Positions 587-1,528 of a stretch of DNA of 64,000 bases are shown piece after piece. Source of the DNA: Hafnia alvei (GTDB taxonomy: Bacteria > Pseudomonadota > Gammaproteobacteria > Enterobacterales > Enterobacteriaceae). Both the position numbers and the translations under genes were made by a program. Below the pieces are notes generated by a model. The model did no database searches, had not been told where the DNA came from, and saw only the letters and a program-made list of their open reading frames with translations. Each line of letters starts with the position of its first letter. Within the stretch, counting starts at the first letter, position 1. The stretch covers positions 186,001 to 250,000 of the forward strand of contig NZ_FMIQ01000006.1 of NCBI RefSeq assembly GCF_900095695.1, written 5' to 3'.

Positions 587-1528
587 ATGAACGATTTTGC
601 GTCAGTGTTTCAGCAAGGTAATGCGTGGTTTTTTATCCCTAGCGCGATCCTTTTGGGGGCGTTACACGGATTAGAGCCTGGTCATTCAAAAACGATGATG
701 GCTGCATTCATTATTGCCATTAAAGGCACGGTTCGGCAGGCAGTGATGCTCGGGCTCGCGGCGACGTTCTCTCATACCACCATTGTTTGGTTGATAGCAT
801 TTGGTGGGATGTATGTGAGTCAGAAGTTTACCGCCCAGTCCGTTGAACCTTGGCTTCAGTTGATCTCAGCGATGATCATTTTAACCACCGCTGTTTGGAT
901 GTTTTGGCGAACGTGGAGAGGTGAAAAAAATTGGTTGGCGGATATGGAGTCTGACGATCATCATGACCACGACCACGACCACGACCACGACCACGACCAC
1001 GACCACGACCACGACCACGACCACGACCACGACCACGACCACGACCACGACCACGACCACGACCACGACCACGACCACGACCACGACCACGACCACGACC
1101 ACGATCACGTACATCAATTTGATGGTTTGCTGCAAGGGAGCAAAGAGTACCAAGACGCTCACGCTCTGGCACATGCCAATGATATCAAAAAACGGTTCAC
1201 AAATAGCACCGTGACTAATGGACAAATTCTGCTGTTCGGCCTGACGGGAGGGCTAATCCCATGTCCTGCGGCTATTACCGTACTTCTCATCTGCATCCAA
1301 CTCAAAGCGCTGACGCTGGGTGCCACTATGGTTGTCTGTTTCAGTATTGGCCTTGCACTGACATTAGTTGCTGTTGGCGTTGGCGCCGCGGTGGGGGTGA
1401 AGCAGGCACAAAAAAGATGGCATGGATTTAACATGCTCGCGCAAAAAGCGCCTTACTTATCTAGCGCTCTTATTGGTTTAGTTGGGGTATACATGGCAAT
1501 ACATGGGGGTTTGGCGATCCTAAAATAA
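587..1528 (+). CDS. rcnA: Nickel/cobalt efflux protein RcnA with expanded His-Asp loop
   Basis: This inner-membrane exporter of Ni(II) and Co(II) belongs to the NiCoT/RcnA family. Conserved features include an early GALHGLEPGHSKT segment in a membrane helix (residues about 24-36) and a later GLIPCPAAITVLL helix. Between the N- and C-terminal membrane halves lies a cytoplasmic metal-binding loop at residues 125-174 made of an unbroken His-Asp alternation, encoded by a pure hexanucleotide repeat. E. coli RcnA (274 residues) has a shorter His-rich loop, so most of the extra length here (313 residues) is this repeat. Expression should be released from RcnR by nickel or cobalt. The ATG at 587 places the gene 36 bp behind the operators. 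Confidence 0.95.
   Translation: MNDFASVFQQGNAWFFIPSAILLGALHGLEPGHSKTMMAAFIIAIKGTVRQAVMLGLAATFSHTTIVWLIAFGGMYVSQKFTAQSVEPWLQLISAMIILTTAVWMFWRTWRGEKNWLADMESDDHHDHDHDHDHDHDHDHDHDHDHDHDHDHDHDHDHDHDHDHDHDHDHDHDHVHQFDGLLQGSKEYQDAHALAHANDIKKRFTNSTVTNGQILLFGLTGGLIPCPAAITVLLICIQLKALTLGATMVVCFSIGLALTLVAVGVGAAVGVKQAQKRWHGFNMLAQKAPYLSSALIGLVGVYMAIHGGLAILK
965..1102 (+). repeat. Perfect (GACCAC)23 microsatellite inside rcnA
   Basis: Twenty-three uninterrupted copies of GACCAC encode Asp-His pairs, flanked by the degenerate codons CAT CAT before and GAT CAC after. No synonymous change occurs inside the tract, although GAT and CAT would code the same residues. Slippage would change the length in steps of two residues and keep the frame. 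Confidence 0.97.

What the first reader, a model, noticed from the sequence alone, without database searches (positions are those of the whole stretch)
965..1102. Pure (GACCAC)23 microsatellite sets the length of the RcnA metal loop
Twenty-three identical hexamers encode an unbroken Asp-His string with no synonymous drift, although GAT and CAT are available. This implies recent slippage expansion. Each slip adds or removes one metal-binding Asp-His pair without breaking the frame, so the locus could tune nickel/cobalt export between strains or within a culture. Hexamer contingency loci in metal transporters are not something I know to be described.
Basis: partly seen in the sequence, partly recalled or inferred. 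Interest (0 to 1): 0.6.

Follow-up and report, generated by a model that had tools for sequence, protein, structure and literature searches.

The report
Variable Asp-His repeat in RcnA
A six-base DNA repeat inside a nickel/cobalt export gene grows and shrinks between strains, changing the length of a metal-binding loop; the same repeat in Salmonella is already used for strain typing, so the repeat is a known kind, but whether its length tunes metal export is still untested.

Summary
In detail: 23 identical GACCAC hexamers at 965-1102, in frame in rcnA (587-1528). With the following GATCAC they encode 24 Asp-His pairs. Tract length varies: a second genome of the species has 8 units, two congeners 9 and 5. 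This is the orthologous position of the Salmonella typing locus STTR5/Sal16/SENTR5 in yohM (= rcnA), with the same hexamer, 6-26 units in print, slippage measured in passage, and metal selection suggested in 2012. A Klebsiella typing locus also lies in RcnA, with a synonymous hexamer. Added here: the tract in this genus; E. coli O157-type alleles of 6, 7, 8, 9, 10, 11 and 15 units on identical 2175-base flanks, while 46 of 54 other sampled E. coli rows share one length; and recurrence (10 of 91 RcnA sequences have at least 5 pure GACCAC units, at least four changes on a tree). Most likely it is replication slippage in a length-tolerant His-rich loop, with small or no effect per unit. Tuning of export by length is possible but unshown. 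The exact count of 23 comes from an 88-contig draft without reads to check.

The parts
965..1102 (+). (GACCAC)23 pure hexamer tract encoding (Asp-His)23
1103..1108 (+). degenerate edge unit GATCAC (24th Asp-His pair)
587..1528 (+). rcnA, nickel/cobalt efflux transporter, 313 aa; the tract lies in the His-rich central loop
   Evidence: NF007454 547.4 bits, PF03824; alignment with 11 relatives
194..466 (-). rcnR, divergent Ni/Co-responsive repressor
   Evidence: NF011613 183 bits, cut-off 138
516..550 (.). two RcnR-operator-like sites (516-530 and 536-550) of the TACT-G6-N-AGTA form given in PMC7055735
   Evidence: direct repeat 511-551
1226..1246 (+). site equivalent to the published Salmonella STTR5 reverse primer (3 mismatches), downstream of the tract
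   Evidence: primer from PMC4487797

Best explanation
A slippage-prone in-frame hexamer microsatellite (VNTR) in the His-rich central loop of the nickel/cobalt exporter RcnA, at the orthologous position of the Salmonella typing locus STTR5. Shown: the tract, its place, its length change in whole hexamers within the species (two genomes) and genus (four genomes), identical flanks around seven different alleles in E. coli O157-type genomes, and repeated occurrence of such tracts in this loop across the family. Inferred: strand slippage at replication homogenises the repeat (hence no synonymous drift) and changes the number of Asp-His pairs; the loop, probably cytoplasmic and disordered, binds Ni/Co but tolerates a wide range of lengths, so most unit changes have small or no effect on export.
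For: Same species 8 units vs 23, congeners 9 and 5, inside an otherwise conserved rcnA (alignments to the same-species genome 99.1% over 1025 bp and 98.7% over 3455 bp, both reaching into the tract). E. coli: 6, 7, 8, 9, 10, 11 and 15 pure units in seven loci, one per length, whose 2175 bases outside the tract are identical (7 of 7). The 60 best-ranked rows for an O157:H7 query show six spans, all whole hexamers apart (22, 15, 9, 8, 4 and 2 rows), against 46 of 54 non-O157-type rows of a spread sample at one span, that of K-12 MG1655. Literature passages: STTR5 motif CACGAC or ACCACG in yohM (PMC3391293, PMC3170611), 17 alleles of 6-25 units (PMC3170611), one-unit slips in 50 generations of passage (PMC5183578). 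Both STTR5 primers match L092/L193 (G535) exactly on either side of its (GACCAC)12; the reverse one has a 3-mismatch site in the window. mutS and mutL frames are intact in the genome, so no mutator is needed.
Against: Only one other genome of the species is held, so within-species variation rests on two strains, and the longer count comes from the draft. Near-neutrality is not shown: PMC5183578 reports predominance of mid-range lengths and names functional constraint as one possible cause. A threefold range of His in the loop within the genus (27, 13, 12, 9) could also reflect selection. The structure model is too weak (mean pLDDT 55) to prove disorder. The non-O157-type E. coli rows were compared by span; only 7 loops outside the O157-type group were read (6 without a run of 2 or more units, 1 with 4).
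Confidence: 0.85

Rival explanations
1. Contingency-like tuning: the tract is kept hypermutable because length variants with different Ni/Co export or chelation are favoured in different metal conditions.
For: Tracts recur in the same loop with different hexamers: pure GACCAC of 5 or more units in 10 of 91 RcnA needs at least 4 changes on the tree; any hexamer whose copy number rounds to 5 or more is in 13 of 91 (one of them 4.67) and needs at least 6. In 392 genomes of the family the (GACCAC)5 pattern hits 11, in rcnA in 10. PMC3391293 suggests metal selection for the Salmonella alleles.
Against: No phenotype of a length variant was seen in the papers searched. The repeat never switches the frame, so there is no on/off state. 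81 of 91 RcnA lack a GACCAC tract of 5 or more units. The search's own control, the pattern read backwards, hits more genomes of the same set (17 of 392 by my count of the rows), so pure hexamers of this make-up are not rare in themselves; only the placing in rcnA stands out, and a loop rich in His/Asp/Glu codons is a ready seed for them.
Confidence: 0.15
2. The count of 23 is an assembly artefact; the true tract in this strain is shorter or longer.
For: 88-contig draft; a 138-base pure repeat is close to the length of common short reads; the other three genomes of the genus, in 1-3 contigs, have 5-9 units.
Against: The contig (467,792 bases) runs on through the tract, the frame is kept, and 23 lies inside the published range of the Salmonella orthologue (6-25 in PMC3170611, 26.3 copies in UK-1 in PMC3391293).
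Confidence: 0.12
3. Length change by recombination (unequal exchange or gene conversion with another copy) rather than by replication slippage.
For: The same-species difference is 14 units (84 bp), at once or in sum.
Against: Only one rcnA at strong score in each genus genome, and all 19 matches of (GACCAC)5 in this genome lie in the one tract, so no donor was found. Published passage events were nearly all single-unit (33 of 34 over the typed loci, PMC5183578).
Confidence: 0.08

Closest known systems
Salmonella MLVA locus STTR5 (= Sal16; SENTR5/SE-5 in Enteritidis) in yohM = rcnA
   Same: Same hexamer (CACGAC and ACCACG are rotations of GACCAC), same gene and loop, overlapping range of unit numbers, in frame; the reverse primer site is recognisable in the window.
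Klebsiella pneumoniae MLVA locus 27 in rcnA (PMC3948817)
   Same: 6-bp variable repeat within the putative RcnA gene; the table row gives 0-19 (column header not seen).
   Different: Unit CATGGT, which on the other strand is a rotation of GACCAT: Asp-His with a synonymous His codon.
RcnA of Escherichia coli (NF007454, NicO PF03824)
   Same: Exporter with divergent rcnR and a His-rich central loop.
   Different: The K-12-derived loop read (L126) is an irregular His/Asp/Glu/Gly mixture without a tandem tract; O157-type loops carry a pure GACCAC tract; E. coli has rcnB next to rcnA, whereas here nfrB follows.
Expanded RcnA loop of cable bacteria (PMC11247825)
   Same: Putative cytoplasmic His-rich loop enlarged in one lineage.
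   Different: Reported as 100-123 aa with 33-53 His; no microsatellite variation is mentioned in the passages read.
Simple-sequence contingency loci (Moxon type; recalled)
   Same: Hypermutable short tandem repeat in a gene.
   Different: A unit of 6 keeps the frame, so any effect is graded and not on/off; no phenotype shown.

Membership tests
RcnA nickel/cobalt exporter | Sequence over the curated model cut-off | tested here: met
   NF007454 547.4 bits vs cut-off 195; PF03824 196.7 vs 27.7
RcnA nickel/cobalt exporter | Divergent rcnR with TACT-G6-N-AGTA operators between the genes | tested here: met
   RcnR at 194-466 (-), NF011613 183 bits; sites at 516-530 and 536-550
RcnA nickel/cobalt exporter | Ni/Co efflux activity | not testable with these tools
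   needs an assay
RcnA-loop VNTR (STTR5 type) | Same hexamer at the same place in rcnA | tested here: met
   motif in PMC3391293 and PMC3170611; STTR5 reverse primer site at 1226-1246 with 3 mismatches, none in 100 shuffles; both primers exact around the tract in L193/L092. The forward primer was searched in loci without mismatches only; it has no exact site in this genus.
RcnA-loop VNTR (STTR5 type) | Unit number differs between strains on fixed flanks | tested here: met
   23 vs 8 in one species (two genomes), 9 and 5 in the genus
RcnA-loop VNTR (STTR5 type) | Length changes within a culture | not testable with these tools
   shown for Salmonella in PMC5183578 (passages); no reads for this strain
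Contingency locus | Repeat change alters expression or function reversibly | not testable with these tools
   no phenotype data seen
Contingency locus | Classical on/off switch by frameshift | tested here: not met
   6-bp unit; the stretch between the two conserved motifs is one open frame in all 10 RcnA with at least 5 pure units

The most novel reading that the evidence does not exclude
The RcnA loop is a recurrent metal rheostat: in several enterobacterial lineages hexamers coding Asp-His or His-Glu have expanded separately into hypermutable tracts because unit number sets Ni/Co binding and export, so populations hold standing variation in metal tolerance.
Probability: 0.13. Interest if true: 0.6.

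Novelty: new member of a known kind. Interest (0 to 1): 0.27.

Why it matters
It turns a widely typed repeat into a question with a clear test. The typing papers seen use the repeat as a marker, yet it changes the number of metal ligands in an exporter's loop. The survey shows that the tract is present in some lineages of the family and absent in others, and E. coli offers both states (loops without the tract and a lineage with many alleles on identical flanks), so a laboratory E. coli K-12 system could settle whether length matters.

Tried and rejected
Mutator origin: rejected, the mutS (1317.9 bits) and mutL (612.4 bits) frames are intact in the genome. Plasmid-borne relatives: a near-mode search of the plasmid collection with window 1-4500 hit only nfrB-like DNA (query 2233-3489) in 7 records. 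Solved structure: phmmer gave 9 distinct sequences at E up to 0.1 (best 3.7e-8), none of them called a nickel/cobalt exporter and, for the best four, matching the Asp-His stretch of the query; I read them as low-complexity matches. AlphaFold model from 12 sequences: mean pLDDT 55, residues 125-174 without secondary structure and mostly under 50; too weak, so I ran no fold search. Hydropathy segments were too crude to settle topology; the cytoplasmic placing of the loop rests on a DeepTMHMM prediction quoted for cable-bacteria RcnA in PMC11247825. The genus is not named by the tools; it looks Hafnia-like to me by recall only. G535 (L092) is taken as Salmonella by inference from the two exact primers. 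The key functional papers on RcnA (Rodrigue 2005, Iwig 2006) were seen only in reference lists.

Rows dropped or not read: of 93 genomes matched, four (G610, G395, G319, G450) were not fetched because the matches were partial, in pieces or below the cut-off; the other 89 gave 92 loci with three second copies, of which one (L183) gave no full frame, leaving 91. From, one partial row and one row with a shorter match end were left out of the 54, and 4 O157-type rows were counted apart. Of the 8 rows of the 54 off the common span, 4 were read: three differ in rcnA length, one only outside rcnA; four that differ by 1-2 bases were not read. The best-60 list is ranked by similarity to one allele, so its allele frequencies are biased and the identical flanks are partly favoured by that choice. 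The tree's bootstrap had not settled and it has long branches; the change counts are parsimony minima and do not tell gain from loss. In the 13 hexamer-bearing rows copy numbers were rounded, so one row of 4.67 counts as 5.

Full report
What is there. The window holds rcnR (194-466, minus) and rcnA (587-1528, plus), divergently placed, with two sites of the RcnR operator form TACT-G6-N-AGTA between them at 516-530 and 536-550. Inside rcnA, 965-1102 is exactly (GACCAC)23, followed by GATCAC. The protein matches the RcnA model over its cut-off (547.4 vs 195 bits) and Pfam NicO. The tract is by far the longest exact short repeat found in the window (138 bases; the next are 12). Since GAC and CAC are minority codons in the other long ORFs of the window (212 of 642 and 104 of 251), the purity is best explained by copying of units and not by codon preference.

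It varies. All 4 genomes held for the genus carry rcnA and the tract, with different counts: 23 in the window's genome, 8 in a second genome of the same species, 9 and 5 in two congeners. Between the two same-species genomes the alignments on either side, which reach into the tract, are 99.1% (1025 bp) and 98.7% (3455 bp) identical, and the difference is 14 whole units (CDS 942 vs 858 bp). Edge units are degenerate (GATCAC, GACCAT, GGTCAC). The longest count, 23, is in the one draft assembly (88 contigs); the others are in assemblies of 1-3 contigs. So the count 23 itself needs reads.

It is a known kind. STTR5, a Salmonella Typhimurium MLVA locus, lies in yohM, the older name of rcnA. From passages read: PMC3170611 gives the motif ACCACG and 17 alleles of 6-25 units, 31 serovars; PMC3391293 gives CACGAC with 26.3, 13.3, 20.3, 7.3 and 8.3 copies in five strains and suggests differing selection by the metals; PMC5183578 reports 12,112 isolates with mid-range 8-14 units, and passages of 50 generations in which the text counts four one-unit deletions from the 26-unit and three from the 15-unit STTR5 allele (its table also lists one event in the insertion column for 26), and weighs functional constraint against intrinsic bias; PMC4487797 lists the locus with its primers; PMC2430564 lists the 6-bp SENTR5 in yohM of Enteritidis; PMC2658671 lists a 12-bp rcnA VNTR difference between two Paratyphi A genomes. 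Klebsiella MLVA locus 27 is a 6-bp repeat in RcnA (PMC3948817). The STTR5 reverse primer has one site in the window, 3 mismatches, at 1226-1246, and both primers match locus L193/L092 exactly on either side of its tract. So the finding is the same repeat at the same place in another genus.

E. coli as a natural comparison. 5315 of 5426 E. coli genomes hold a match to the window's rcnA. Of loops read outside the O157-type group, 6 of 7 have no run of 2 or more GACCAC units and one (L127) has 4; all O157-type loops read have 6 or more. Seven O157-type loci, one per length, carry 6, 7, 8, 9, 10, 11 and 15 pure units, and their remaining 2175 bases are identical in 7 of 7. The 60 best rows for an O157:H7 query fall into six spans, all whole hexamers apart; that list is ranked by similarity, so frequencies are biased. 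Of 54 non-O157-type rows of a spread sample, 46 share one span, which is that of K-12 MG1655; of the other 8, three read differ in rcnA length and have irregular loops without the tract, one differs only outside rcnA, and four differ by 1-2 bases and were not read. Variation thus goes with the pure tract, as far as spans tell.

Recurrence. In 392 genomes of the family, 92 have RcnA over the cut-off. Of 91 full RcnA segments read, 10 have at least 5 pure GACCAC units and 81 do not; on a tree built without the loop this needs at least 4 changes, and the 13 with any hexamer rounding to 5 or more copies (CATGAG in two, coding His-Glu, and ACCATG at 4.67 in one besides the 10) need at least 6. The (GACCAC)5 pattern occurs in 11 of 392 genomes, in 10 of them in rcnA, and in one at the start of another protein. 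Against any claim that such hexamers are special as DNA: the pattern read backwards, the search's control, hits 17 of the same 392 genomes by my count. What stands out is the placing in rcnA. Tracts arise or are lost repeatedly in this loop; the tree cannot say which.

How it most likely works. Slippage during replication adds or removes whole hexamers and keeps them identical; the frame is never broken. The loop was predicted cytoplasmic for a cable-bacteria RcnA of canonical layout (PMC11247825), and His/Asp-rich low-complexity stretches are enriched in nickel- and cobalt-binding proteins (PMC6821194). Because the His cluster as detected ranges from 3 to 32 His across the 91 sequences and alleles differ widely within one E. 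coli lineage, I take the effect of one unit as small. That last step is inference.

Verdict. Real, variable, and a new member of a known kind; interesting mainly as a testable open question.

Noticed in passing
2050-4272 (+): nfrB (c-di-GMP-activated glycosyltransferase family, NF008411) is split by an in-frame stop at 2416-2418 into two frames. In the same-species genome (L059) the frame is also split, at another place; in congener G003 (L061) only a 429-aa frame was listed; in congener G001 (L060) it is one 740-aa frame.
   Followed up: partly
L150, L156, L114: Other RcnA loops carry different tandem tracts: CATGAG x10.3 (G486) and its rotation TGAGCA x14.5 (G427), both His-Glu, and a 9-bp repeat in G314: separate microsatellites in the same loop.
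   Followed up: partly
L188 (G336:C15): The only (GACCAC)5 match outside rcnA in 392 genomes of the family codes an Asp-His run at the N-terminus of a protein of about 273 aa that looks SseB-like by recall.
   Followed up: no
44326-44510 (+): M-box magnesium riboswitch (RF00380, 107.4 bits) upstream of the ORF at 44568.
   Followed up: no
36733-36926 (-): Match to Yersinia sRNA Ysr251 (RF02855, 148.3 bits), antisense to the end of the ORF at 36143-36931.
   Followed up: no
48458-48536 (+): ARAGORN calls a tRNA-Ala with anticodon AGC in a low-GC stretch, overlapping a 16-bp repeat at 48527-48562; Rfam lists no match there at gathering score, so it is probably spurious.
   Followed up: partly
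20984-21045: About four imperfect copies of a 16-bp unit (TATTGTTAGTAGCCGG) between the ORFs of 180 aa or more, unexplained.
   Followed up: no
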